Assembly: GCA_027886175.1 (NCBI GenBank)
Contig: JAJNNQ010000011.1
Location: forward strand, 2,976,001 to 3,040,000
Source: Phylloscopus collybita
Lineage: Eukaryota; Chordata; Aves; Passeriformes; Phylloscopidae
DNA length: 64,000 nucleotides
Direction of reading: 5' to 3'
The position numbers and the translations under genes are program-made. The notes beneath the pieces are model-generated. The model had not been told where the DNA came from. It made no database searches and worked only from the letters and a program-made list of their open reading frames with translations. Below are positions 10,440 through 62,000 of the stretch, piece by piece (the first letter of the stretch is position 1; each line of letters begins with the position of its first letter).

Positions 10440-11240
<801 letters not shown>

Positions 11241-20705: not shown

Positions 20706-21945
20706 AGGGGCCCTGCCTCTAGCCAGGTAGAGGTTAGGGAAAATCGTGTTTTTTGGACAGTGTGGGTTCGTTGGCCTGGCACATTGAAGCCACAAAACTA
20801 TAAGGCTTTGGTTGACACTGGCTCGCAGTGTACATTGGTCCCATCGAGATATGTAGGGGCAGAAGCGGTTTCCATCGCTGGTGTGACTGGGGGATCCCAA
20901 GACTATACGTTGGTAGAGGCAGATGTGAGCCTGACAGGAAATGAATGGAAGAAGCACCCCATTGTGACCGGCCCAGAGGCCCCATGCATTTTGGGCATAG
21001 ATTACCTCCAAAGGGGGTATTTCAAAGACCCGAAGGGACTCAGGTGGGCATTTGGTGTGGCAACTGTGGTGACAGAGGGCGTCCAACAATTGAGTACCGT
21101 GCCTGGACTGTCCGAGGATCCACTGACAGTAGGACTCCTGAAGGGGGAAGAACAACAGGTACCAATTGCCACTTCGGTAGTGCATCGCCGGCAGTATAGA
21201 ACAACTCGAGATGCCGTGATCCCCATCCATAGGATGATCCGGGAGCTGGAGAGCCAAGGGGTGGTTAGCAAAACCCACTCACCCTTCAACAGTCCCATTT
21301 GGCCTGTGCGTAAATCTGAAGGAGAATGGAGATTAACTGTGGACTATCGTGCATTGAATGAAGTGACACCACCACTGAGCACTGCCGTGCCAGACATGTT
21401 GGAGCTCCAGTACGAGCTGGAGTCCAAGGCAGCGAGGTGATATGCCACTATTGATATTGCCAATGCATTTTTCTCCATTCCTTTGGCAGCGGAATGCAGA
21501 CCCCAGTTTGCTTTCACCTGGAGGGGAGTGCAGTACACCTGGAATCGACTGCCCCAGGGGTGGAAGCACAGTCCCACCATCTGCCATGGACTGATCCAGG
21601 ATGCACTGGAAAAGGGTGAGGCTCCGGACCATCTACAGTACATCGATGACATCATTGTGTGGGGGAACACGGCAGCGGAAGTCTTTGAGAGGGGAGAGAA
21701 GATCATTCAGATTCTCCTGGAAGCCGGTTTTGCCATCAAGAAGAGTAAGGTCAAAGGACCTGCCCGGGAGATCCAGTTCCTGGGAGTGAAGTGGCAAGAT
21801 GGACGGCGTCAGATTCCCCTTGAGGTCATCAATAAGATCACCGCCATGTCCCCACCTACCAGCAAGAAGGAAACACAAGCTTTCCTAGGGGCCATCGGCT
21901 TTTGGAGGATGCACATCCCCGAATACAGTCAAATTGTGAGCCCTC
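20706..21945 (+). pseudogene. ERVL protease and reverse transcriptase, 5' part of pol
   Basis: In the same frame as gag after its stop. Protease motif ALVDTGSQCTLVPS lies near 20805. RT follows: QGVVSKTHSPFNSPIWPVRK, TVDYRALNE, TIDIANAFFSIPL and LPQGWKHSPTICHG, with catalytic YIDDIIVWG near 21639. An in-frame TGA at 21438-21440 (AGG TGA TAT) splits it, consistent with a decayed CGA Arg codon. The frame is cut at 21945 by the inner provirus and resumes at 30269. Confidence 0.75.
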
Positions 21946-22245
21946 TGTGGGCCTGCAGGGCCTGGAGCTAGAGAGCCGAAGTGGAAGTATGGCTGCACTT
22001 ATGTCAAGAGCAGAAGAGCTAGGCCTCAAGCCTTGGCACGGCAAAGCGGGATTTTGAGAAAGTTGCTGTGATAGTGCATTTTAGGCATACCTGTGTTAGT
22101 TAGTACGAGGCATATGTTAAGCAATATCACTTGGCATGTATTACTTGTTATATAATGCGTGGGTATAAAAGCACAGCTAGGTGGATCAATAAACGGCTTC
22201 ATATGGGCAATGTATGGAGTCCACGTCTCTTTGTCATCGCCATCA
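21946..22245 (+). repeat. 5' LTR of the young provirus
   Basis: Starts TGTGGGCCTGCAGG and ends CGCCATCA. Promoter-like GGGTATAAAAGC is near 22172 and the polyadenylation signal CAATAAACGG near 22188, unusually close together, giving a short R/U5. The 3' end of env is encoded in U3 of the partner LTR. Confidence 0.92.
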
Positions 22246-22413
22246 AATGGTGCCCTCGTGTGAGGAGCGATGATCGCCTAGCTCTGCGACCGGGTGGCGA
22301 CGCCCTGCAGGACGAGACCGCTGAAAGGAAGCGGAGGCCGGCCGGCAATCAATTCCTCCGGGAAAAGGAGGTGAGCTAACCCCTGCTGGGTTGGGGTAGC
22401 GCTGCAGGGAACG
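22246..22413 (+). promoter_or_regulatory. Primer-binding site and leader with splice donor
   Basis: Two bases after the LTR, TGGTGCCCTCGTGTGAGG (22248-22265) occupies the primer-binding position; I could not assign the tRNA. A strong splice donor AAAGGAG|GTGAGC lies at about 22371-22376, upstream of the gag ATG, and is a good candidate for the major donor feeding subgenomic mRNAs for env and the two extra frames. Confidence 0.6.
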
Positions 22414-24240
22414 ATGGGTCAGGGAATTTCTGGTCCGGAAAGAGACGTTTATGAACGTATGCTTAAGCTCTTACAGCAACATGATAAAACTCTGCCTTCG
22501 CATGATTTAAAACTTATATTACGCTGGGTAGCGGCAGAAGTCCCGGGAGTAACGGAATCCACGATCTTTACGTTAGATCTGTGGGATGAGGCGGGAGTTA
22601 AGTTATGGGACTCTGCCACGAAAGGAAACAAAGCCGTTGCACAAATGCTGCCCTCTTGGAGGGTGATTTTTGAAGCCTTGAAGGCTCAGAACAATTCCCA
22701 AAAGGCAGAGAAACCTTGTACTGCTACTGCTGATTCTCAGTCTACCTTAAAAGTCGAAGACACTGCTGCTAAAAACCAGAACGCTGCTATCTCTAAAACT
22801 GCTGCTATCTCGGAAGACTCCCCGAATTCCTTGAATTCCGAGGAAACTGCATCCCAGTGCTTGTCTACTTCACCCCCCCTCCCGCCGCACAAATCCCCTG
22901 CTGCTTCTGCGTTGTGTGTTGAGGGAAAAAGGGAGGGGGGTCCCTCGCGCCGACCTGTAAAGGCTTTTGCTGCTCACTATGACGATGAAGACAGTGGTCC
23001 GGAGGAGGATCCCTTCGACCCTGGACTCATAGACCCTGACAAGGAGCCTAATTTGTTTCCCCCTGACCCCCATGACTACTGGCTCCGCTTAAAACAACAG
23101 GCATTAAGAGAGGGGGATCTTGAGGTTGCTGGGAGGATTGTGGCTCCGGTGATTTATACTGGTACTAGGAAACGTTCAGCGCACTGGGAACAGCTTTCTT
23201 TCTCTGAGATTAAAGAGTTGCGGCGAGCAGCTACAGATCATGGTATTGGGTCACCGCATTTTACAAGTTTGCTTGATTCTGTATTTGCTGCCCACACTAT
23301 GACCCCGTATGATTTAAAAACCCTCTCCAGAATACTGTTAACTCCCGTACAATACAGCTTATGGGAAAAGGAGTGGGAAAAGGGCTTGCAAAGCCTGCTG
23401 TTAACTTATATGGGCCATGCAAATCCAGCCCTGGCTGCTCTTACTATCAGGCAGCTAATGGGAACAGGTCCATTTTCTGACCCTGCTACTCAGGCGCGTG
23501 AATGCCCGCGGGAGGCTCTAGATGGGGCTCGTGATGCGGCGCGCCAGGCTTTCCTTAAGGTCCCTGATGCAAAAACACCCCTGAAGGCATTTACAACTAT
23601 TGTCCAGGGACCCCAGGAGCCGTATATGCAATTTATTGATCGCCTCAAGCAGGCACTGGAACGTCAGATTGATAATGCAGATGCTCGTGAAATCTTGCTT
23701 TTAAAACTTGCTGTTGAAAATGCAAATGCTGACTGTAAAAAACTCCTAAAGTCCCTGCCGAACCAGGAACCGACCATTGTTGAAATGGTTGAGGCATGTA
23801 ATCGTATTGGGACTCTGGAACATCAGTATGAGGCTATGGCTGCAGCTTTTGCAGCAGCTAAGGGTACGACACCCGTTTGCTATAAATGTCATAAACCCGG
23901 TCACCTGAAAAAACACTGCGTTGCTCGGGAAGGAGCCAAATCTAAGATCCCTGATATATGCCCTCGGTGTCGTAAGGGTCGTCATTTTCCTAATGAATGT
24001 CATTCTAAGTATGATTCTGAAGGTCGCCTGATCCAGGGAAACTGGAACAGGAGCGCGGATGGCCGGAGACGCGTGACGATACAAATCCCCCCCCGGCCCC
24101 CGGCACAGTACGTCCGACCACAGACGCCAGCGCCAGCTCCGCCAGCCCCGCAGCCACAGCCCAGCCAAGGACCATCTCAAGCCTACGTCCAGCAACCCCC
24201 GGCAGCTTCGCCATGGACCTGGCAACCTCAGACACAGTAA
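22414..24240 (+). CDS. gag: gag polyprotein of the young provirus
   Basis: 608 residues, intact: matrix, capsid and nucleocapsid structural polyprotein. MGQGISG gives an N-myristoylation start for membrane targeting. A variable Ser/Pro-rich region lies around 100-200, followed by capsid with the major homology region QGPQEPYMQFIDRLKQAL at about 398-415. Two CCHC knuckles for RNA packaging are CYKCHKPGHLKKHC (489-502) and CPRCRKGRHFPNEC (516-529), then a Pro/Gln-rich tail. I find no PPxY or P(T/S)AP late motif. The heptamer G GGA AAC at 24036-24042 lies in the Gag frame just after knuckle 2, so a fraction of ribosomes should shift -1 into the protease frame. The layout is betaretrovirus-like. 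Confidence 0.92.
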   Translation: MGQGISGPERDVYERMLKLLQQHDKTLPSHDLKLILRWVAAEVPGVTESTIFTLDLWDEAGVKLWDSATKGNKAVAQMLPSWRVIFEALKAQNNSQKAEKPCTATADSQSTLKVEDTAAKNQNAAISKTAAISEDSPNSLNSEETASQCLSTSPPLPPHKSPAASALCVEGKREGGPSRRPVKAFAAHYDDEDSGPEEDPFDPGLIDPDKEPNLFPPDPHDYWLRLKQQALREGDLEVAGRIVAPVIYTGTRKRSAHWEQLSFSEIKELRRAATDHGIGSPHFTSLLDSVFAAHTMTPYDLKTLSRILLTPVQYSLWEKEWEKGLQSLLLTYMGHANPALAALTIRQLMGTGPFSDPATQARECPREALDGARDAARQAFLKVPDAKTPLKAFTTIVQGPQEPYMQFIDRLKQALERQIDNADAREILLLKLAVENANADCKKLLKSLPNQEPTIVEMVEACNRIGTLEHQYEAMAAAFAAAKGTTPVCYKCHKPGHLKKHCVAREGAKSKIPDICPRCRKGRHFPNECHSKYDSEGRLIQGNWNRSADGRRRVTIQIPPRPPAQYVRPQTPAPAPPAPQPQPSQGPSQAYVQQPPAASPWTWQPQTQ

Positions 24241-24890
24241 CGTTGCTTGATTCTACTGTTCATTTACTCCCTACAGGAATTTTTGGTCCACCGGGACCCC
24301 AGACGAGTGCCTTGCTCGTGGGCAGGTCCTCAACTACCATCCAAGGACTTTTTGTTTTGCCAGGAGTCATAGACTCGGACTCTGTAGGGGAAATAAAAAT
24401 AATGGCTTGGACTCCTTTTCCACCTTGTACTGTTCCACGAGGGGCATGTATTGCACAATTGATCCCCTTTACACACAGTTTAACACCCCCTGTACCAGAG
24501 TGTAACACAAGAGAGGGAGGGTTTGGTTCCACAGGTACCCCAGAAATATTGTGGGTGCAGGAAATTTCTAATAAACGTCCTGTGTATACATGTACCTTGA
24601 CACTGCGGGGACAGCAGGTGACAGTCACCGGGATTCTGGATACGGGTGCGGACGTGAGTATAGTCTCTCAGGCCAAGTGGCCCCCCACTTGGCCCCTCAC
24701 CGAGGTATCACAAACCCTCACTGGGATTGGGGGACATAGCAACAGTCATCAAAGTCTCTGTCCCATACAGGTGACAGGACCTGATGGTCGCATAGCCTGT
24801 GTTAGGCCATTTGTGTTACCTGTGCCTATGGTGTTGTGGGGACGGGATGTGCTCTCTCAGTGGGGAATAAAAATGCAGTCAGATTTTTAA
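24009..24890 (+). CDS. pro: dUTPase-like domain and aspartic protease (pro)
   Basis: Expressed as Gag-Pro by frameshift; the frame is open 24009-24890. The N-terminal part is dUTPase-derived: GVIDSDSVGEI and VPRGACIAQLIPF match family motifs, and GGFGSTG resembles the terminal P-loop. Motif 3 has Ser where the catalytic Tyr is expected (GVIDxDYxGE), so the enzyme may be inactive. The protease follows with ILDTGADVSIVS (active Asp codon at 24639) and flap-like sequence GIGGHSNSH; it would mature Gag-Pol. dUTPase fused ahead of protease is typical of betaretroviruses. The frame ends TTT TAA, overlapping pol. Confidence 0.88.
24036..24042 (+). promoter_or_regulatory. gag/pro -1 ribosomal frameshift site, G GGA AAC
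   Basis: Canonical X XXY YYZ heptamer in the correct gag phase (codons GGA at 24037, AAC at 24040). The protease frame is closed by TAA at 24006-24008 and opens from 24009, so the shift must fall between 24009 and gag's stop at 24240; this is the only classic heptamer I found there. The GC-rich sequence downstream (AGCGCGGATGGCCGGAGACG) could fold into the required stem or pseudoknot. Confidence 0.8.
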
Positions 24891-27556
24891 TTGGGGCCAT
24901 TGCGGCGCGTAGCACCCTGAAATTAACCTGGAAAACTGAGACACCTGTCTGGGTGGATCAATGGCCCCTTCCCTTTCCCAAATTACGCGCACTCACTGAC
25001 CTTGTCCAGGAGCAGCTGGAAAAGGGACGTATAGTCCCTTCTACCAGTCCCTGGAACTCACCTGTATTTGTTGTTAAAAAACAAAGTGGCAAGTGGCGCT
25101 TGCTCCAAGATCTCCGTAAAGTTAATGATGTTATTGAGGACATGGGGACCCTTCAGCCTGGTTTACCTTCCCCTACCATGATTCCCCGTGATTGGCATCT
25201 CACAGTAATAGATTTAAAGGACTGCTTCTTTGATATTCCTTTGCACCCTGATGATGCTCCTAAATTTGCCTTTTCTGTTCCTAGCCTTAATTTACAAGCC
25301 CCCTTGCAAAGGTACCATTGGCGATTTTTACCCCAAGGAATGAAAAACTCCCCCACGATATGTATGTGGTTTGTTGCGGGGGTCCTAGCCCCCATTCGTA
25401 AGCAAATGCCCGCTGCTTTGATATATCATTATATGGATGACATTCTTGTTGCGGCAGAACAACAGGAAATCATGGAGGAAGCCCTAGCCCTTGTCACTGC
25501 TGCTGTAACCCAAGCAGGACTTTGTATTTCTCCTGAAAAAATTCAGCGTCAGCCCCCCTGGAAATATTTGGGATGGCGCATTAGGACCCAGAGTATTTCT
25601 CCTCAGCCTTTGCAAATTCATGCTGACATTCGTACTTTGCATGATGCCCAGAAACTTCTGGGAAAGATAAATTGGGTTCGTTCCTTATTGGGAATTTCAA
25701 ACACTGAATTAGCCCCTCTATTTGAGTTGCTGAAGGGGGAGTCTGATCTCCTTTCACCCCGGCACCTCTCACCAGAGGCCTGCCAAGCACTGCAATTGGT
25801 AGCTGATGCTATTTCCAGTCGGCAAGCAGCCCGATGGGCCCCTGAGTTGCCTTTTTCACTGATAATTCTGAATCCAGGTAAACAACCTCATGCTTTAATT
25901 TTTCAGTGGGATCCTAAAGCGCCCGACCCCTTGCTGATTATTGAATGGATTTTTTTGCCACATCAGATGTCTAAAACTGTAACTACACAACATGAAATGT
26001 TTGCTATGCTTATTGTTAAGGCAAGACAGAGACTTACCACACTTGCAGGTGTGGATTTCTGTTATATTTGTTTGCCTGTTACTACTTTTTATTTACAGTG
26101 GCTGATGCAACAATCTGAAGTTTTTCAAATTGCCCTTGCAGATTTTTCTGGACAGCTTTCTACACATCCCCCTAAGCACAGACTTGTAGCCACCAGTTTT
26201 AACCTCCTGATGCGTCCTAAAAGAAGTGAGATCCCTTTACAAGCTTTAACTGTTTTTACAGATGGTTCCGGACGCACTCAGAAGTCAGTACTGCTGTGGT
26301 GGAACACTGATCTCGCCCGGTGGGACTCAGATGTCGCTACAGTTTCGGGTTCCCCCCAGATTGCTGAATTAGCAGCTGTTGTTCGAGCCTTTCAACGTTT
26401 TGTTGCTCCTTTAAACTTAATAACAGATTCTGCTTATGTTGCAGGCCTTGTGGAGAGAGCTGAAGCTGCTGTTTTAAAAGATGTACCTAACAAGGATCTG
26501 TTTTACTGGTTGCAACAACTTGTTTACCTTTTAGATAACAGACAGCACCCCTATTTTGTTATGCATGTTAGGTCTCACACTACTTTGCCTGGTTTTATTG
26601 CAGAAGGAAACCGCCAGGCAGACTTGCTTACTTTAACTGTTCATTTACCAGATCGCTTCTCTCAGGCTAAACTTAGCCACTCTTTCTTTCATCAGAATGC
26701 TGCTGCACTTGCTCGCACCTTTGATTTGACTACACGCCAAGCTGCTAGTATTGTGGCTGTGTGCCCAGATTGCCAGAGGCACTCCTTCCCTGCCCTTGCT
26801 GGAGGTGTTAACCCTAGAGGACTCGAAAGCCTCCAGATTTGGCAAACAGATGTAACTCACTTCCCTGAATTTGGGAGACTCAAGTACATTCACTCCTCTA
26901 TTGATACCTTTTCAGGTGCCTTATTTGCCTCCTGCCACACAGGAGAATCAGCAAAGGACGTGTGTCGTCACTTTTCAAATGCTTTTGCAGTTCTTGGTGT
27001 TCCCTTACAGGTTAAAACTGATAATGGGCCAGCATACATTTCCCAGAGAGTTGCGAACTTTTTCGCTCTCTGGGGAGTAACACACAAGACGGGGATTCCT
27101 CACTCTCCCACAGGACAAGCTATTATTGAAAGGGCTCATGCTTCACTTAAACGCCTTTTGTTGCAACAGAAAGGGGGAATGGGGAATTCCACCCCGGCAG
27201 AGCGATTGCAGAAAGCATTGTATGTGTTTAACTTTTTAAATTGCTCACTCATGGATCCGAATCCACCGATTGTAAGGCATTTTGGCAGCAGCCCCAAGCT
27301 GGAAGTAAAGCAGAAAGCCCCGGTTTTAATTAAGGATCCTGAGACGGGTAAAATTATGGGACCCTATCCCCTTGTCACATGGGGAAGAGGTTTTGCTTGT
27401 GTCTCCACAGAGATCGGCCCCAGATGGCTTCCGGCCAAGAATGTGAGACCTTTCAGAGAACCTCTGCAGACCTCCCCTGAGGATCCTAATCAACCTGGCA
27501 CTCCACCTGCAGTTTCGCCTGCTCCACCCTCGCCTTCTCCCCTCTCAGACAGCTGA
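24836..27556 (+). CDS. pol: pol: reverse transcriptase, RNase H, integrase
   Basis: About 890-906 residues, in the -1 frame relative to pro; entry is probably by a second -1 shift close to the pro stop (A GAT TTT TAA region, 24881-24890), so the ATG at 24836 need not be used. RT: VIDLKDCFFDI and catalytic YMDD at residue about 199. RNase H: FTDGSG (Asp about 476), AELAAV, LITDSAYV and GNRQADLL. Integrase: zinc ligands His615, His619, Cys643 and Cys646, and catalytic Asp672, Asp729 and Glu765 with exactly 35 residues between the last two. The Pro-rich C-terminus ends 33 bp before the next ATG. Every catalytic residue I can identify is present. It copies the RNA genome and inserts it into host DNA. 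Confidence 0.92.
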   Translation: MGTGCALSVGNKNAVRFLIGAIAARSTLKLTWKTETPVWVDQWPLPFPKLRALTDLVQEQLEKGRIVPSTSPWNSPVFVVKKQSGKWRLLQDLRKVNDVIEDMGTLQPGLPSPTMIPRDWHLTVIDLKDCFFDIPLHPDDAPKFAFSVPSLNLQAPLQRYHWRFLPQGMKNSPTICMWFVAGVLAPIRKQMPAALIYHYMDDILVAAEQQEIMEEALALVTAAVTQAGLCISPEKIQRQPPWKYLGWRIRTQSISPQPLQIHADIRTLHDAQKLLGKINWVRSLLGISNTELAPLFELLKGESDLLSPRHLSPEACQALQLVADAISSRQAARWAPELPFSLIILNPGKQPHALIFQWDPKAPDPLLIIEWIFLPHQMSKTVTTQHEMFAMLIVKARQRLTTLAGVDFCYICLPVTTFYLQWLMQQSEVFQIALADFSGQLSTHPPKHRLVATSFNLLMRPKRSEIPLQALTVFTDGSGRTQKSVLLWWNTDLARWDSDVATVSGSPQIAELAAVVRAFQRFVAPLNLITDSAYVAGLVERAEAAVLKDVPNKDLFYWLQQLVYLLDNRQHPYFVMHVRSHTTLPGFIAEGNRQADLLTLTVHLPDRFSQAKLSHSFFHQNAAALARTFDLTTRQAASIVAVCPDCQRHSFPALAGGVNPRGLESLQIWQTDVTHFPEFGRLKYIHSSIDTFSGALFASCHTGESAKDVCRHFSNAFAVLGVPLQVKTDNGPAYISQRVANFFALWGVTHKTGIPHSPTGQAIIERAHASLKRLLLQQKGGMGNSTPAERLQKALYVFNFLNCSLMDPNPPIVRHFGSSPKLEVKQKAPVLIKDPETGKIMGPYPLVTWGRGFACVSTEIGPRWLPAKNVRPFREPLQTSPEDPNQPGTPPAVSPAPPSPSPLSDS

Positions 27557-27588
27557 ATCCAGAGACTGCTGAGAGCCTGCACCCACCT

Positions 27589-28224
27589 ATGCCAAGCGAA
27601 GAACGACGAAGGCACCTACATCGTCTTCGACTGTTGACACAGAAACCCCTACAACAACTCGAACAGCTTTTGCAACGACGCTTGCGTTGGACAAATGAGG
27701 AAGATTTGGGACAGATAATAACTGTATTTACTTGTGGTGATAATCCTATTCCATATCACACCTGTTTGCATTGCGGAAAACGTGATTGTGCTGCTTGGAT
27801 AAAAATCTATTGTGGGGGTTGTGGCCATAAGGTGTGGGTGTTTCAGAACCATTGGAGAAATTACCTCCTTTGTGGGACTTGTTTTCATAATTGGAGCAGA
27901 GATACTTGGTACAATGCTATAAGTAAGTACACTGGATTACCTTGGTATAAAGGGTTAAGCTTGATTGAAGATCTAGCGGCCCGAGAGAGATTGCATTTGG
28001 CTTGGCGCCTGGATCGCCTTGTGAATCGGTTAACAGCAGAAAAGAATACTCAAGTATTAGAACATAGGTGTAAGGTAGGCTTAAAGATTCCACAAATTTG
28101 GCAGATAGAGGATAGTGAGTGGGAAGCTACATGCCGCAGGCATGCTGTGATACCTGCTGATCTGCAAACTGGAAGACCCAGAAGCAGTCGAAAGACACAT
28201 TCAAAGAACTCGCAGAGTGCTTAG
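27589..28224 (+). CDS. Unrecognised cysteine-rich accessory frame X1
   Basis: 211 residues between pol and env, which simple retroviruses do not have. It starts at ATG 27589; the same frame is open upstream into the end of pol and is -1 relative to pol. An Arg/Leu-rich N-terminal helix (to about residue 35) is followed by a zinc-binding-like core: Cys49, CLHC 59-62, Cys67, CGGC 75-78 (then GH) and CGTC 95-98 (then FH). Next come aromatic sequence (HNWSRDTWYNA, GLPWYKG), a charged helical region and a basic Ser-rich tail. No signal peptide or membrane span is seen. Spacing of CLxCG and CxxCF resembles X2, suggesting paralogy. Position recalls lentiviral accessory genes, but I recognise no homologue. 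Being intact in a young provirus argues it is a real viral gene. Function unknown. Confidence 0.75.
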   Translation: MPSEERRRHLHRLRLLTQKPLQQLEQLLQRRLRWTNEEDLGQIITVFTCGDNPIPYHTCLHCGKRDCAAWIKIYCGGCGHKVWVFQNHWRNYLLCGTCFHNWSRDTWYNAISKYTGLPWYKGLSLIEDLAARERLHLAWRLDRLVNRLTAEKNTQVLEHRCKVGLKIPQIWQIEDSEWEATCRRHAVIPADLQTGRPRSSRKTHSKNSQSA

Positions 28225-28699
28225 TTCGCTATTGCAGAAACATAGTGATGGTAATGTTGATGATATAATACATGAATTGCTTTATGCTCAAGTTCGTGCA
28301 GAAAGACGTGTAGAAAAGGTAGCACGGTGTCGGTCACATAATTTTAGCTGTTACCCTGTTGTGACTGCTGTTTGTCTACAGTGTGGTGCACGAACTACTC
28401 GTAGAATTTCATATATTGCTAGTATTTTATGTTTCTTTTGCTTTCGAGATATTAATACAACATTTACTCCACTTGCATTTATTAGGGATCAATTAGGGCC
28501 TGAAGTGCTTCGACAGCACCTGTCTGGTCCTAGACATTTTTCACGCTTTAATTTACAGAGATTTTTGCAGAGAATAGAATCGTTAGATCAACGTGCTTTA
28601 GCTATTACTGTGTATAATCAAACAAGAGATAACCTGATCGTTAAGTTGTGGGATAAGCAAACTATAATCAAAACAAAATGTGGAAAATTCATATATTAA
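28151..28699 (+). CDS. Unrecognised cysteine-rich accessory frame X2, no AUG
   Basis: Open from 28151 (after TGA 28148) to TAA at about 28699, overlapping the end of X1 and the first 22 bases of env. The frame contains no ATG at all. A product would need a start supplied by splicing, a non-AUG codon (GTG at 28217) or a +1 shift from X1. It is helical at the start (VDDIIHELLYAQVRAERRVE), then Cys-rich: counted from GTG 28217, Cys38, His41, Cys45, CLQC 53-56 and CFFC 72-75, with a hydrophobic stretch between the last two pairs, then Leu/Phe/Arg-rich helices. The order of a CLxCG pair and a CxxCF pair parallels X1, consistent with an old tandem duplication within the virus. I recognise no family. 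Confidence 0.6.
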   Translation, partial: YLLICKLEDPEAVERHIQRTRRVLSSLLQKHSDGNVDDIIHELLYAQVRAERRVEKVARCRSHNFSCYPVVTAVCLQCGARTTRRISYIASILCFFCFRDINTTFTPLAFIRDQLGPEVLRQHLSGPRHFSRFNLQRFLQRIESLDQRALAITVYNQTRDNLIVKLWDKQTIIKTKCGKFIY

Positions 28700-30075
28700 C
28701 TCTTTTATACTTAAGGATTCTTTATATAGAGGAAGTGACTGCCATGCCACCCCTTCCTGAACGCAATGTATGGCTTACGCTTGCTGAAGCTTTGAATGAG
28801 TCTACACTGTGCCTGTCCATGACCTCTCCTGGTGATCCTTTCCAGACTTGCCTGATAGCTATACCTTTGGGGAAAACTGAATGGGATACCCTATACAATG
28901 AAACAATGCACAGGGATTGTACTGCCCCAGGCCGAATTGAGCCATTGTGGTGGTGTTATGATAGATATCGAAAACAAAATAATAGAAATGCTGGGTGGTA
29001 CTTTGTTAATGATAAAGGGTTGGGGGTGAACAAGGTTTCTGATTTCTCCCCCCTTTCCTTGCCACCCCAGGAATTGGACATTTTTGGATCCATGCAAGCT
29101 TTTGCATGTTTTTACTTAAACTACACCGCTGGGCCTTTTCAGGAAGTTTCAGGCACGGGGATTTATGCCAATGCCTCTGCCTGGTGCAATCATACCCTGC
29201 CGCAGCCCATTACACCTGGGACTGCTTCTATTGGCCTGATGGATAATATATTTATGATATGTGGAAACAGAGCTTGGAAGGGAATACCAGGAAGGTCTGT
29301 AGGAGGACCTTGTACCTTTGGGAGGCTAACCATGTTTCACTCTTTTCGGGATAACTTGCCAATGCTGCGCAGCTTAGTAAGAGCAAAACGTAGCACACAC
29401 ACATACAGCCCTGACTGTAATGATAATGTGGAGTTCTGGAACCTTGGAGCCCGAATCTTTGCCTCTATCATTCCAGCTATAGGTACAGCACATGCATTGA
29501 AGACTTTGAATAATCTTGGCTGCTGGCTTGCGAAACAAACTAATGCTACTAGCTCTGCTTTAACAGGCTTGCTAACAGATGTTGACAGTATTAGGCATGC
29601 AACCCTTCAGAACAGGGCTGCGATTGATTTTTTGCTTTTAGCCCATGGACACGGTTGTGAAGATTTTGAAGGCTTATGCTGTATGAATCTGTCGGACAAC
29701 TCCTTGTCTATTCATGCTAGCATACAGGCTCTTCGGGACAGCGTGACCAAATTAAGAGTAGTAGATGATAGTGACTGGCTTGGACACTTGCTTGGCGGAT
29801 GGGGACTCACTGGCTGGCTTAAACATTTAGCTAAAACAGGAATTTATATTTTAGCCATATTGTTGCTGATGATGATTTGCTTGCCATGTATCTTGCAATG
29901 TGTGCAGAGACTGATTGACAAGACCACCAAGAAGATCCTCTTGGTAGAACAGAAAGGGGGAGATGTGGGCCTGCAGGGCCTGGAGCTAGAGAGCCGAAGT
30001 GGAAGTATGGCTGCACTTATGTCAAGAGCAGAAGAGCTAGGCCTCAAGCCTTGGCACGGCAAAGCGGGATTTTGA
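28678..30075 (+). CDS. env: env glycoprotein of the young provirus
   Basis: 465 residues, intact: surface and transmembrane envelope glycoprotein that binds receptor and fuses membranes. The hydrophobic start MWKIHILTLLYLRILYI serves as signal peptide. A furin site RAKR at 235-238 separates a short surface subunit from the transmembrane subunit. The latter has the LQNRAAIDFLL immunosuppressive-type region and the disulphide motif CX6CC (Cys327, Cys334-335), so the subunits are probably covalently linked as in gamma/alpha types. The membrane span is about 388-408 (ILAILLLMMICLPCIL). The cytoplasmic tail runs across the polypurine tract and 112 bp into the 3' LTR. Several N-glycosylation sites are present. 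The transmembrane half is clearly alpharetrovirus-like, the surface half is short and unfamiliar. Its mRNA must be spliced. Confidence 0.92.
   Translation: MWKIHILTLLYLRILYIEEVTAMPPLPERNVWLTLAEALNESTLCLSMTSPGDPFQTCLIAIPLGKTEWDTLYNETMHRDCTAPGRIEPLWWCYDRYRKQNNRNAGWYFVNDKGLGVNKVSDFSPLSLPPQELDIFGSMQAFACFYLNYTAGPFQEVSGTGIYANASAWCNHTLPQPITPGTASIGLMDNIFMICGNRAWKGIPGRSVGGPCTFGRLTMFHSFRDNLPMLRSLVRAKRSTHTYSPDCNDNVEFWNLGARIFASIIPAIGTAHALKTLNNLGCWLAKQTNATSSALTGLLTDVDSIRHATLQNRAAIDFLLLAHGHGCEDFEGLCCMNLSDNSLSIHASIQALRDSVTKLRVVDDSDWLGHLLGGWGLTGWLKHLAKTGIYILAILLLMMICLPCILQCVQRLIDKTTKKILLVEQKGGDVGLQGLELESRSGSMAALMSRAEELGLKPWHGKAGF
29951..29963 (+). promoter_or_regulatory. Polypurine tract
   Basis: AGAAAGGGGGAGA directly before the 3' LTR, in the position that primes plus-strand DNA. 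It lies within the env reading frame (EQKGGD). Confidence 0.85.
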
Positions 30076-30263
30076 GAAAGTTGCTGTGATAGTGCATTTT
30101 AGGCATACCTGTGTTAGTTAGTACGAGGCATATGTTAAGCAATATCACTTGGCATGTATTACTTGTTATATAATGCGTGGGTATAAAAGCACAGCTAGGT
30201 GGATCAATAAACGGCTTCATATGGGCAATGTATGGAGTCCACGTCTCTTTGTCATCGCCATCA
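29964..30263 (+). repeat. 3' LTR of the young provirus
   Basis: 300 bp, identical by eye to the 5' LTR, followed by the target duplication CCCTC (30264-30268) and resumption of the interrupted ERVL pol at CTGTACTTGG. It encodes the last residues of env and the TAG-bounded frame end at 30075. Confidence 0.92.
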
Positions 30264-31167
30264 CCCTCTGTACTTGGTTACCCGCAAGAAGAATGATTTC
30301 CACTGGGGCCCTGAACAGCAGCAAGCCTTTGCCCAGATCAAGCAGGAGATCTTGGCCGCCTACGAAGGAGTTCAAGCCGCCTCGGAGGTGATTGGCACGG
30401 AAGCACAACTCCTCCTGGCACCCCGACTACCGGTGCTGGGATGGATGTTTAAAGGAAAGGTTCCCTCCACCCACCATGCCACCGATGCTACCTGGAGCAA
30501 GTGGATTGGTGTCATGACACAACGCGCCCGAGTTGGGAGACTGAATCGCCCTGGAATTTTAGAGGTAATTACAAACTGGCCCGAAGGTGAAAGTTTCAGT
30601 GTGGCAGATGAAGAACAAGAACCAGTGACCCGGGTGGAGGAAGCTCCGCCATACAACCATCTGCCAGCAGAGGAAGCACGTTACGCTTTATTCACCGACG
30701 GTTCCTGCCGTGTCATAGGGATGAGTCGGAGGTGGAAAGCAGCTGTATGGAGCCCCACACGACAGGTCACAGAGGCCACTGAAGGAGAGGGTGGATCCAG
30801 TCAATATGCTGAACTCAAGGCCATTCAACTGGCCCTAGATATTGCAGAGAGGGAAAAGTGGCCAAGGCTCTATTTGTATACTGATTCGTGGATGATAGCC
30901 AATGCTCTGTGGGGATGGCTGAAGAAATGGAAAGAGGCGAACTGGCAGCGTAGAGGCAAACCAGTTTGGGCTGCTGAAGAATGGAAAGATATTGCTGCCC
31001 GGTTAGAGAACCTACTTGTGAAGATTCGCCATGTAGATGCCCATGTCCCCAGAAGCAGAGCTAATGAGGAGCAGCAAAACAATCAGCAGGTAGATCAAGC
31101 TGCAAAGATTGGGGAGTTAAAAATAGATCTTGACTGGGAGCACAAGGGAGAGTTGTTCCTAGCATGA
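30264..31167 (+). pseudogene. ERVL pol continued: RT end and RNase H
   Basis: Continues the ERVL polymerase after the insertion (YLVTRKKNDFHWGPEQQQAF). RNase H motifs are YALFTDGSCR near 30680, AELKAIQLALD and LYLYTDSWMIAN, followed by VRHVDAHVPRS-like sequence (IRHVDAHVPRS). In-frame TGA at 31165-31167 stops it; integrase continues in the same frame. Confidence 0.75.
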
Positions 31168-32010
31168 TGGGCCCATGATGCCTCAGGTCACCAAGGTAGA
31201 GATGCCACCTATAAGTGGGCACGAGACCGAGGGGTGGATCTAACCATGGACAGCATTTCTCAAGTTATCCGTGACTGTGAGACGTGCGCTGCCATCAAGC
31301 AAGCCAAGCGGGTGAAGCCCCTCTGGTATGGAGGGTGGTGGTCTAAGTACAAGTATGGGGAGGGCTGGCAGATTGATTACATCACACTGCCTCAAACCCG
31401 CCAAGGCAAGCGCCATCTGCTGACCATGGTAGAAGCCACCACGGGATGGTTGGAAACCTACCCTGTGTCCCATGCTACAGCCCGTAACACCATCCTGGGC
31501 CTTGAAAAGCAGGTCCTTTGGAGGCACGGTACGCCCGAGAGAATTGAGTCAGACAATGGGACTCACATTAAAAATAATTTTATTAAAAACTGGGCTAGGG
31601 AACATGGCATTGAGTGGGTGTACCATATCCCCTACCATGCACCAGCTGCAGGTAAAGTGGAGAGGTACAATGGGTTGTTAAAAACCAACCTGAAAGCATT
31701 GGGTGGGGGGTCCTTAAAAAATTGGGAGCAGCATTTAGCAAAGGCCACCTGGTTGGTCAACACCTGAGGCTCCACCAACCGAGCAGGCCCTGCCCAGGCT
31801 GAACCTCTGCATGCAGTAGATGGGGATAAAGTCCCAGTGGTGCATGTTCGGGGTTTGTTAGGAAAGACAGTGTGGATTAAGTCTGCTACATGTACAGACA
31901 AACCCATTCATGGAGTTGTCTTTGCTCAGGGACCAGGTTGTATCTGGTGGATAATGCAAAGAGATGGGACAACACAGTGCATGCCTCAGGAAGATCTGAT
32001 TGTTGGGTGA
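31168..32010 (+). pseudogene. ERVL integrase
   Basis: Same frame after TGA 31165. Zinc-ligand Cys pair is in DCETCAAIKQ; catalytic motifs are WQIDYITLP, ESDNGTHIK and GKVERYNGLL, so all three acidic residues survive. A second in-frame TGA at 31765-31767 (ACC TGA GGC, a decayed CGA) precedes the C-terminal domain (LLGKTVWIKSATCTDKPI), which ends at TGA 32008-32010. No env follows, as expected for ERVL. Confidence 0.75.
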
Positions 32011-43382: not shown

Positions 43383-44300
<918 letters not shown>

Positions 44301-48998: not shown

Positions 48999-50417
<1,419 letters not shown>

Positions 50418-56488: not shown

Positions 56489-56894
56489 CCCCTGGAAAAT
56501 AGGAAATCAAAATTGTGGAATCCCTGAGGTTGAAAAAGACCTCCAAGACCATCCAGTATTCCTTGAGGCCACCAGAAGAGAGGATTGAATGCAAAAGATT
56601 TTCTGGGGTTGAAAGTAAACAAATCCACTATGCCCAAGGAATTCCCAATTTTGGTCTGTGTCCCAATGGATGTTCCTGCCCCTGTGTTCATCCAGGTGCC
56701 CACAGGGAGCCAAGAAGATGTGGAGCCCCCCAGCCAGGTGTCTTCCCAACAGGGATCACAAGGACCACGGATCACCAGGTCTCTGCCCAACAGTAGGTCA
56801 CTGGGGATCATCCAACGCCGATCCTCCCATGGGGGATGGAGCTGGAGCAGCGCACGAAGCTCTTCCCGCTCTCAGGGCACTCCCAGGGCTTCCC
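56489..56894 (-). other. 3' region of gene C
   Basis: Shared zinc-finger 3' flank with the decayed finger complementary to 56830-56890. An LTR marks its outer edge. No gene seen. Confidence 0.5.
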
Positions 56895-60411
<3,517 letters not shown>

Positions 60412-61431: not shown

Positions 61432-62000
61432 GCGCTGAGCTGCAGATGGAGCCCGGGGAGAACAAAGCCCTGCCAGAGAACCTTGTGGGAGAGGCTGTTT
61501 GGAGCAGCCCCACTGCACAGGGACGATGCCATGGGGAGGAAAAGCCCCGGAGGTGCAGGAGGAGGGGCTGTAAACCCAGCCCAGGGAGCTGCGAGGAGGA
61601 AAAGCCCTTCCTGTGCTGGGAAGGCAGCCGCAGATCCAGCCGGAGCTCAGAGCTGGTGGAGAAGCCTCAGGGCGGGGAGAAGCCCCACAAGTGCTTGGGA
61701 TGTGGGAAGGGCTTCAGCCGGAGCTCCAGCCTCATCAGTCACCGCCAGAGCCACACTGAGGAGAGGCCCTGCAAGTGTGGGGGGTGTGGAAAGAGCTTCA
61801 GGGAGAATTCCAGCCTTACCTGGCACCAGAGCATCCACAGAGTGGAAAAGGCCGGTGAGCTTGGGGAATGTGGGAAGAGCTTCAGGGAGAGTTCCAGCCT
61901 GATCCAGCAGCGCTGGATCCACACCGGGGAAAAGCCCTGCAAATGTGGGGAATGTGGGGAGGGCGTCAGCCAGAACTCCCACCTGAAGGCACACGAGCAC
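61432..62000 (+). pseudogene. C2H2 zinc-finger gene E, degenerate
   Basis: The exon follows TTTTCCCTCCTCCCTCAG at 61431; ATG 61446 starts MEPGENKALPENLVGEAVWS, an extra N-terminal segment not seen in the other finger exons, then [20 protein letters not shown]. Fingers 1-2 are complete (RSSSLIS, ENSSLTW). Finger 3 has lost its first Cys (GELGEC) and a His (QQRWIH). Finger 4 has Val for the core Phe and ends EHIQ for the last His. No stop follows; the frame reads through former 3' flank to 62516 with a Cys/Leu-rich tail. Probably a decaying gene, though a short protein with two working fingers is possible. Confidence 0.65.

What the first reader, a model, noticed from the sequence alone, without database searches (positions are those of the whole stretch)
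27589..28699. Two overlapping cysteine-rich accessory frames in an intact avian provirus
Seen: between pol and env there are 1.1 kb of coding-looking sequence in two overlapping frames, X1 (CLHC, CGGC, CGTC) and X2 (CLQC, CFFC). Known: simple alpha-, beta- and gammaretroviruses have no gene pair here; lentiviruses place accessory regulators at this position. Inference: these are small zinc-binding accessory proteins, perhaps counter-defence or regulatory factors, that arose by duplication inside this retroviral lineage. I recognise no homologue, so this may be an undescribed retroviral gene module.
Basis: partly seen in the sequence, partly recalled or inferred. Interest (0 to 1): 0.88.

Follow-up and report, generated by a model that had tools for sequence, protein, structure and literature searches.

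The report
Unrecognised accessory genes in bird retrovirus
A young, well-preserved retrovirus inserted in what looks like a bird genome carries two extra cysteine-rich coding stretches between its enzyme and envelope genes that matched no described gene in our searches, which suggests that this bird virus group has accessory proteins of its own.

Summary
Between pol and env of a young provirus (identical 300-bp LTRs, 5-bp target duplication, nested in an older retroelement) lie two long open frames: X1, 27589-28224, and X2, 28151-28699. Second-longest open run: 175 codons, against at most 103 in 2000 shuffles. X1 looks like a subgenomic gene: the best-scoring donor (22370) and a top acceptor (27549) give an mRNA whose first AUG is X1's. 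X2 is supported by third-position bias and by one relative (P0001: 87 of 116 residues identical, CxxC-x15-CxxC and end kept). X2 has no AUG and lies in the +1 frame relative to X1, so it needs splicing, a +1 shift or a non-AUG start, or has lost its start here. No relative of X1 was found. No family, solved-structure sequence or confident model explains either. Gag-pro-pol is betaretrovirus-like (dUTPase in pro), Env alpharetrovirus-like. Duplication is only weakly suggested. Best reading: a lineage-specific accessory module of basic zinc-binding proteins, like Vif/Vpr-class late proteins in position and predicted expression, not a member of those families. Function is inferred. The decisive comparison with other copies in bird genomes could not be run.

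The parts
21946..22245 (+). 5' LTR, 300 bp, TG...CA, TATAAA at 22164, AATAAA at 22188
   Evidence: identical to 29964-30263
22248..22265 (+). probable primer binding site (begins TGG two bases after the LTR); tRNA not identified
   Evidence: sequence; inference
22370..22371 (+). predicted major splice donor (exon ends 22370)
   Evidence: highest-scoring of 409 GT sites in about 21900-30300
22414..24240 (+). gag
   Evidence: Gag_p24 E 7.6e-32, Gag_p24_C, zf-CCHC_5; gag/pro slip heptamer GGGAAAC at 24036
24021..24890 (+). pro with dUTPase
   Evidence: dUTPase 6.2e-14, RVP 8.1e-21; frame open from 24021
24806..27556 (+). pol (RT, RNase H, integrase)
   Evidence: best solved-structure matches 7sr6, 7usf, 3jca
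27549..27549 (+). predicted splice acceptor for X1 mRNA (exon starts 27549; first ATG 27589)
   Evidence: score 7.6, level with the best of 534 AG sites
27589..28224 (+). X1, 211 aa, pI 9.5, 10 Cys (CxxC at 59, 75, 95)
28074..28382 (+). possible intron inside X1/X2 (exon ends 28074, exon resumes 28382) whose ends are in phase between the X1 and X2 frames
   Evidence: donor score 4.5, acceptor 2.7; phase from coordinates; hypothetical
28151..28699 (+). X2 open frame, 182 codons, no ATG, pI 9.7, CxxC-x15-CxxC at residues 75-97
   Evidence: relative P0001
28559..28559 (+). predicted env splice acceptor (exon starts 28559; first ATG 28678)
   Evidence: score 3.7, 24th of 534
28678..30075 (+). env, 465 aa, avian gamma-type TM with CX6CC
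   Evidence: Avian_gp85 2.9e-11, TLV_coat 7.8e-12; ASLV fusion TM 4jpr 3.4e-22
29964..30263 (+). 3' LTR
21941..21945 (+). target-site duplication CCCTC (other copy 30264-30268)
   Evidence: flanks joined at the duplication read through in one frame as an RT-like peptide of the older element

Best explanation
X1 and X2 are a real accessory-gene module of an avian class II ('alpha-beta') retrovirus. Shown by sequence: two long open frames, coding bias in X2, one X2 relative from another source with the four CxxC-x15-CxxC cysteines and the end conserved, and a donor and acceptor placed so that X1's AUG is the first on a spliced mRNA. Inferred: X1 is translated from a singly spliced mRNA that still contains the env acceptor; X2 is reached from X1 by alternative splicing or a +1 shift, or from a non-AUG start. 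Both are small basic proteins folded around zinc. Production from incompletely spliced mRNA resembles lentiviral Vif/Vpr-class late proteins more than early Tat/Rev-class regulators (recalled), so the most likely job is binding host proteins to remove or block an intrinsic restriction. My estimates: real coding module about 0.85; zinc-binding about 0.7; host-factor antagonism about 0.4.
For: ORF lengths beyond shuffles; GC3 depletion in the X2 frame, 0 of 5000; P0001, E 2.4e-53, 87 of 116 ungapped identities, same CxxC-x15-CxxC spacing and same end; splice-site layout; rest of the provirus open with identical LTRs, so the frames have had little time to decay; no credible match to other families in Pfam, PHROGs, NCBIfam or solved-structure sequences; basic pI 9.5 and 9.7.
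Against: No relative of X1 in two protein searches. X1's own coding bias is weak. X2's bias is absent in 28151-28225 and slight in 28559-28696. X2 lacks an AUG. P0001 shows a frame-changing difference upstream of the cysteine block. Only one relative and no DNA for it, so no dN/dS. Structure models are low confidence (pLDDT 43.0 and 41.2). Splice scores come from a simple matrix and other AG sites in pro and pol score as high or nearly so (24364 also 7.6, 26696 7.3). No transcript data. The function step has no direct evidence.
Confidence: 0.45

Rival explanations
1. X1 and X2 are two parts of one gene: one continuous product made through splicing or a +1 shift, or a single frame that was split by a length change in this copy or its parent.
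For: X2 has no AUG; the frames overlap only over 28151-28224; donor 28074 and acceptor 28382 are in phase by coordinates; both parts are basic with CxxC pairs.
Against: LTRs are identical and the other genes open, so a recent break would have had to hit this spot; no +1 shift signal recognised by eye and no unusual RNA structure over 28140-28260 (z -0.10); P0001 is reported as a separate 132-aa frame, though its contig is only 943 bases.
Confidence: 0.35
2. X1 or X2 is a transcription or RNA-export regulator (Tat/Tax- or Rev/Rec/Rem-like).
For: Betaretroviruses export unspliced RNA by Rem/Rec or a CTE (passages of PMC3621094); X1 has a short basic N-terminal run, 6 R/K in 9; no Rfam export element was seen in 21900-30300 at E<=1, the only match being a sub-threshold RSV_RNA hit inside pol.
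Against: No match to the leucine-rich export pattern in X1; two loose matches in X2, one kept in P0001. X1 would be made from an mRNA that itself retains the env intron (inference), which does not suit an early regulator.
Confidence: 0.25
3. The stretch is captured or drifting non-coding DNA, open by chance or by composition.
For: Lower GC than pol: X1 0.44, X2 0.37, pol 0.46; no X1 homologue; weak codon-usage signal.
Against: Shuffle and GC3 tests; the protein-level relative of X2; no second copy in the window.
Confidence: 0.06

Closest known systems
Lentiviral accessory genes between pol and env (vif, vpr and kin)
   Same: Genome position; small basic proteins; predicted use of partly spliced mRNA; cysteine or zinc motifs (lentiviral side recalled)
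   Different: Vif H-x5-C-x17/18-C-x3/5-H and SLQ[YF]LA (recalled patterns) absent in X1, X2 and P0001; no Pfam match; the virus has a dUTPase in pro and an alpharetrovirus-like Env
Rem (MMTV), Rec (HERV-K) and Sag of betaretroviruses
   Same: Accessory proteins in viruses with betaretrovirus-like Pol
   Different: The Rev-like protein is encoded within env and sag in the 3' LTR (PMC3621094 passages; rec/np9 named in PMC1224870 passages); X1/X2 lie before env
Unassigned extra ORFs of bat beta-ERVs and ORF-x of JSRV
   Same: Extra open frames of unknown function in betaretrovirus-like genomes; the bat ORFs had no database hits
   Different: Placed upstream of gag, inside core genes, or at the end of or downstream of env (PMC3621094 passages); none in a dedicated pol-env interval in the passages shown
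Avian 'alpha-beta' ERVs and alpharetroviruses
   Same: dUTPase in pro in some, -1/-1 frames (PMC1224870 passages); avian gamma-type TM said to be specific to birds (PMC3758190 passages)
   Different: No pol-env accessory pair was described in the passages I saw; TgERV-F (recalled) differs in carrying a mammalian gamma-type env

Membership tests
Class II avian retrovirus with betaretrovirus-like gag-pro-pol | dUTPase fused in pro; gag, pro and pol in successive -1 frames | tested here: met
   dUTPase 6.2e-14 and RVP in one frame; frames by coordinates; GGGAAAC at 24036; pro/pol slip site not found by the pattern used
Alpharetrovirus-type (avian gamma-type) Env | TM related to ASLV with CX6CC and a cysteine-flanked internal fusion peptide | tested here: met
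   4jpr and 5h9c E 3.4e-22; CX6CC and flanking cysteines read by eye in the translation; definition from PMC3758190 passages
Lentiviral Vif | HCCH zinc motif and BC-box SLQ[YF]LA (recalled patterns) | tested here: not met
   absent in X1, X2 and P0001
Rev/Rec/Rem-type export factor | Arg-rich RNA-binding run plus leucine-rich export signal (recalled patterns) | tested here: inconclusive
   X1 6 R/K in 9 but no NES pattern; X2 two loose NES patterns, one kept in P0001, at most 4 R/K in 9
Retroviral CCHC knuckle or C2H2 finger proteins | C-x2-C-x4-H-x4-C, or C2H2 spacing | tested here: not met
   no match in X1, X2 or P0001; best Pfam hits of X1 and X2 at E 0.33 and 0.28
Complex retrovirus (accessory genes expressed from spliced mRNA) | accessory mRNA and protein | not testable with these tools
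   only sequence-level splice prediction
Tandem duplication of one accessory gene (Vpr/Vpx-like pair) | significant, colinear X1-X2 homology | tested here: inconclusive
   36 of 2000 (whole; best alignment not colinear), 50 and 51 of 2000 (cores), 163 of 2000 (X1 core against P0001); BLASTP E 0.002 and 0.031; hhalign probability 3.8%, E 0.011

The most novel reading that the evidence does not exclude
An avian alpha-beta retrovirus lineage is a complex retrovirus: it evolved its own two-part accessory module between pol and env, independent of lentiviruses, encoding zinc-folded basic proteins of a new family, with the second part expressed without an AUG of its own (splicing to X1, +1 shift or CUG start).
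Probability: 0.5. Interest if true: 0.75.

Novelty: new variant of a known kind. Interest (0 to 1): 0.6.

Why it matters
Alpharetroviruses and their bird relatives are the textbook simple retroviruses (recalled). A dedicated accessory module at the lentiviral position would mean that complexity arose again in a bird lineage, and would point to a host pressure in birds that demanded it. Because the provirus is young and open, related copies in bird genomes could date the module, show which frame is under selection, and show how X2 is expressed.

Tried and rejected
Protein searches with X1 whole (171 candidates, none E<=0.01) and X1 core (4 candidates, none). Viral-contig scans with X1, pol, env, the X2 alignment and part of gag and a prokaryote-genome scan with the X2 alignment: no relatives; I expect these collections to hold few or no bird sequences, so this is weak negative evidence. 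AlphaFold models of X2 (alignment of 2) and X1 (single sequence) are below pLDDT 45, so no fold search was made. Vif membership rejected on motifs. Ribosomal_S27e (E 0.33, X1) and DUF3618 (E 0.28, X2), L27_2 (0.12) and DUF7685 (0.15) for P0001, solved-structure hits at E 1 or more such as trypsin, Cdd, SCM3, NUP214 and RLI1 and PHROGs hits at E 0.098 and 0.054 rejected as chance. A structured frameshift stimulator near the overlap was not found. Paper searches listed no paper that I could recognise as describing such a pair; I judged most from titles and abstract starts; one search was swamped by unrelated 'alphabeta' papers; the mBio 2012 avian ERV paper that I recalled is not held. So 'not in print' is not established.

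Full report
What is there. Window 21946-30263 is a provirus: two 300-bp LTRs, identical to each other, with TATAAA at 22164 and AATAAA at 22188, flanked by CCCTC on both sides. The older element around it has RT on the left and RNase H and integrase on the right. When the two flanks are joined at the duplication, one of three frames reads through as an RT-like peptide (likeness judged by eye), so the provirus inserted into that RT gene. gag, pro, pol and env are open. Gag has p24 and knuckle domains, pro carries a dUTPase before the protease, pol has RT, RNase H and integrase, env has Avian_gp85 and TLV_coat matches. The gag/pro overlap (24021-24240) holds GGGAAAC at 24036 in the right phase; no pro/pol heptamer was found in 24806-24890 by the pattern used. 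Among solved structures the best Pol matches are 7sr6, 7usf and 3jca; I recall 7sr6 as a HERV-K RT and the other two as MMTV integrases, the table itself saying only Polymerase and Integrase. The best Env matches are 5h9c and ASLV TM 4jpr (both E 3.4e-22). An avian gamma-type TM was reported as specific to birds (PMC3758190, passages), and alpha-beta ERVs, some with a dUTPase, and a -1/-1 pattern were reported in chicken (PMC1224870, passages). I take the host to be a bird from this; no call named the host.

The finding. Between pol (stop 27556) and env (ATG 28678) lie X1 (27589-28224) and X2 (frame open 28151-28699). In 27557-28677 the two longest open runs on the + strand are 221 and 175 codons; in 2000 dinucleotide shuffles the longest run was at most 182 and the second-longest at most 103. 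In the X2 frame GC at third positions is 33 of 150 over 28226-28675 (0 of 5000 permutations as low) and 11 of 52 over 28226-28381 (5 of 5000). For X1, 27589-28149, it is 70 of 187 (133 of 5000), which is weak. Piece by piece the X2 bias is clear in 28226-28381 and 28382-28558, absent in 28151-28225 (third-position GC 0.44 against 0.36 at second) and slight in 28559-28696 (0.33, 0.30, 0.28). A codon-usage comparison with gag, pol and env gave little for X1 (0.049 in frame against -0.042 and 0.041) and a modest preference for the X2 frame (0.002 against -0.133 and -0.115).

Conservation. One protein in a database of about 5.8 billion was found related to X2 (63 candidates scored): P0001, 132 aa, from a 943-base contig of unnamed source labelled 'lgn' (I recall this as Logan). 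From the first cysteine of the block to the end it aligns without gaps, 87 of 116 identical, with the same CxxC-x15-CxxC spacing and the same end. Its first 16 or so residues do not match the X2 frame but another frame of the window DNA (score 30, 8 of 2000 shuffles; the other two frames 897 and 1575 of 2000). So the two lineages differ there by a length change that is not a multiple of three. The window's own X2 frame is open and biased on both sides of this place, which suggests that the window copy keeps the older frame; this is inference. X1 found no relative in two searches. Because the DNA of P0001 is not available, dN/dS could not be computed.

Expression. The X1 acceptor (exon 27549) scores 7.6, level with the best of 534 (24364, also 7.6), and the first ATG after it is X1's. 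The env acceptor (28559) scores 3.7, 24th of 534, and the first ATG after it is env's. Many AG sites inside pro and pol score better than the env site, so the ranking alone proves little; the placement relative to first AUGs is what fits. X2 contains no ATG. X2 lies in the +1 frame relative to X1, so the -1 slippage expected for gag, pro and pol cannot reach it. Options left open: splicing 28074>28382, which is in phase by coordinates (162 whole X1 codons, then an X2 codon boundary); a +1 shift in 28151-28224, for which no RNA structure is evident (z -0.10); a CTG at 28169 with A at -3 and G at +4 (read); or a lost start in this copy. An ATG at 28142 in the X2 frame is closed by a stop at 28148.

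Proteins. X1: 211 aa, pI 9.5, ten Cys, CxxC at 59, 75 and 95. X2: 182 codons, pI 9.7, eight Cys. Zinc binding is inferred from CxxC pairs and, for X2, their conservation in P0001. Pfam, PHROGs, NCBIfam and solved-structure sequences give nothing credible. AlphaFold gave mean pLDDT 43.0 (X2) and 41.2 (X1), too low for a fold search. The X1-X2 comparison is equivocal. Over whole lengths the best alignment pairs X1 residues 4-35 with X2 residues 118-153 (36 of 2000 shuffles reach it; BLASTP E 0.002), which is not what a tandem copy would give. Between the cores it is the cysteine stretch FTC..P..CLHCGKR versus FSC..P..CLQCGAR (50 and 51 of 2000; BLASTP E 0.031), and X1 core against P0001 is weaker (163 of 2000). 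hhalign gives 3.8% on the same stretch. Duplication remains possible, not shown.

Mechanism. I commit to a late accessory role. X1 would be translated from a singly spliced mRNA that still contains the env acceptor, which is how Vif and Vpr are made (recalled), whereas early regulators of the Tat/Rev kind come from fully spliced mRNA (recalled). Small, basic proteins at this place in lentiviruses bind host factors (recalled). The regulator rival is kept at 0.25 because betaretroviruses use an RNA export protein or element (PMC3621094 passages) and none was recognised here: at E<=1 Rfam showed only a sub-threshold RSV_RNA hit at 24987-25275, inside pol, 40.3 bits against a gathering score of 105.

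Known or new. Nine paper searches listed no paper that I recognised as describing such a module. Bat beta-ERVs have extra ORFs of unknown function elsewhere in the genome (PMC3621094 passages). [quoted passage not shown] The passages shown of PMC6523648, PMC8310711, PMC11334065 and PMC4977317 mention none in birds; in the first three the word 'accessory' does not occur. Most subscription journals and the bioRxiv library are not held, so absence from print is not established.

Limits.

Noticed in passing
window 20760-21945 and 30264-31767: An older element with protease-like, RT, RNase H and integrase domains (RT on the left, RNase H and integrase on the right of the provirus) surrounds the provirus; it is a nested insertion whose empty site reads through.
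   Followed up: partly
window 24987-25275: Sub-threshold match (40.3 bits, gathering 105, E 4.4e-9) to the Rfam RSV_RNA stability element inside the start of pol; probably RT coding similarity to alpharetroviruses.
   Followed up: no
window 10650-11195, 43394-44049, 49239-50377, 56857-57485, 61676-61979: Tandem arrays of 84-base units, read by eye as C2H2 zinc-finger repeats, on both sides of the provirus; the region looks like a zinc-finger gene cluster.
   Followed up: no
window 22246-22266: The primer binding site begins TGGTGCCC two bases after the LTR; from memory it resembles a Met-tRNA site with an extra base, not the Trp (alpha) or Lys (beta) sites; not tested.
   Followed up: no
window 29964-30075: The env frame runs 112 bases (stop included) into the 3' LTR.
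   Followed up: no
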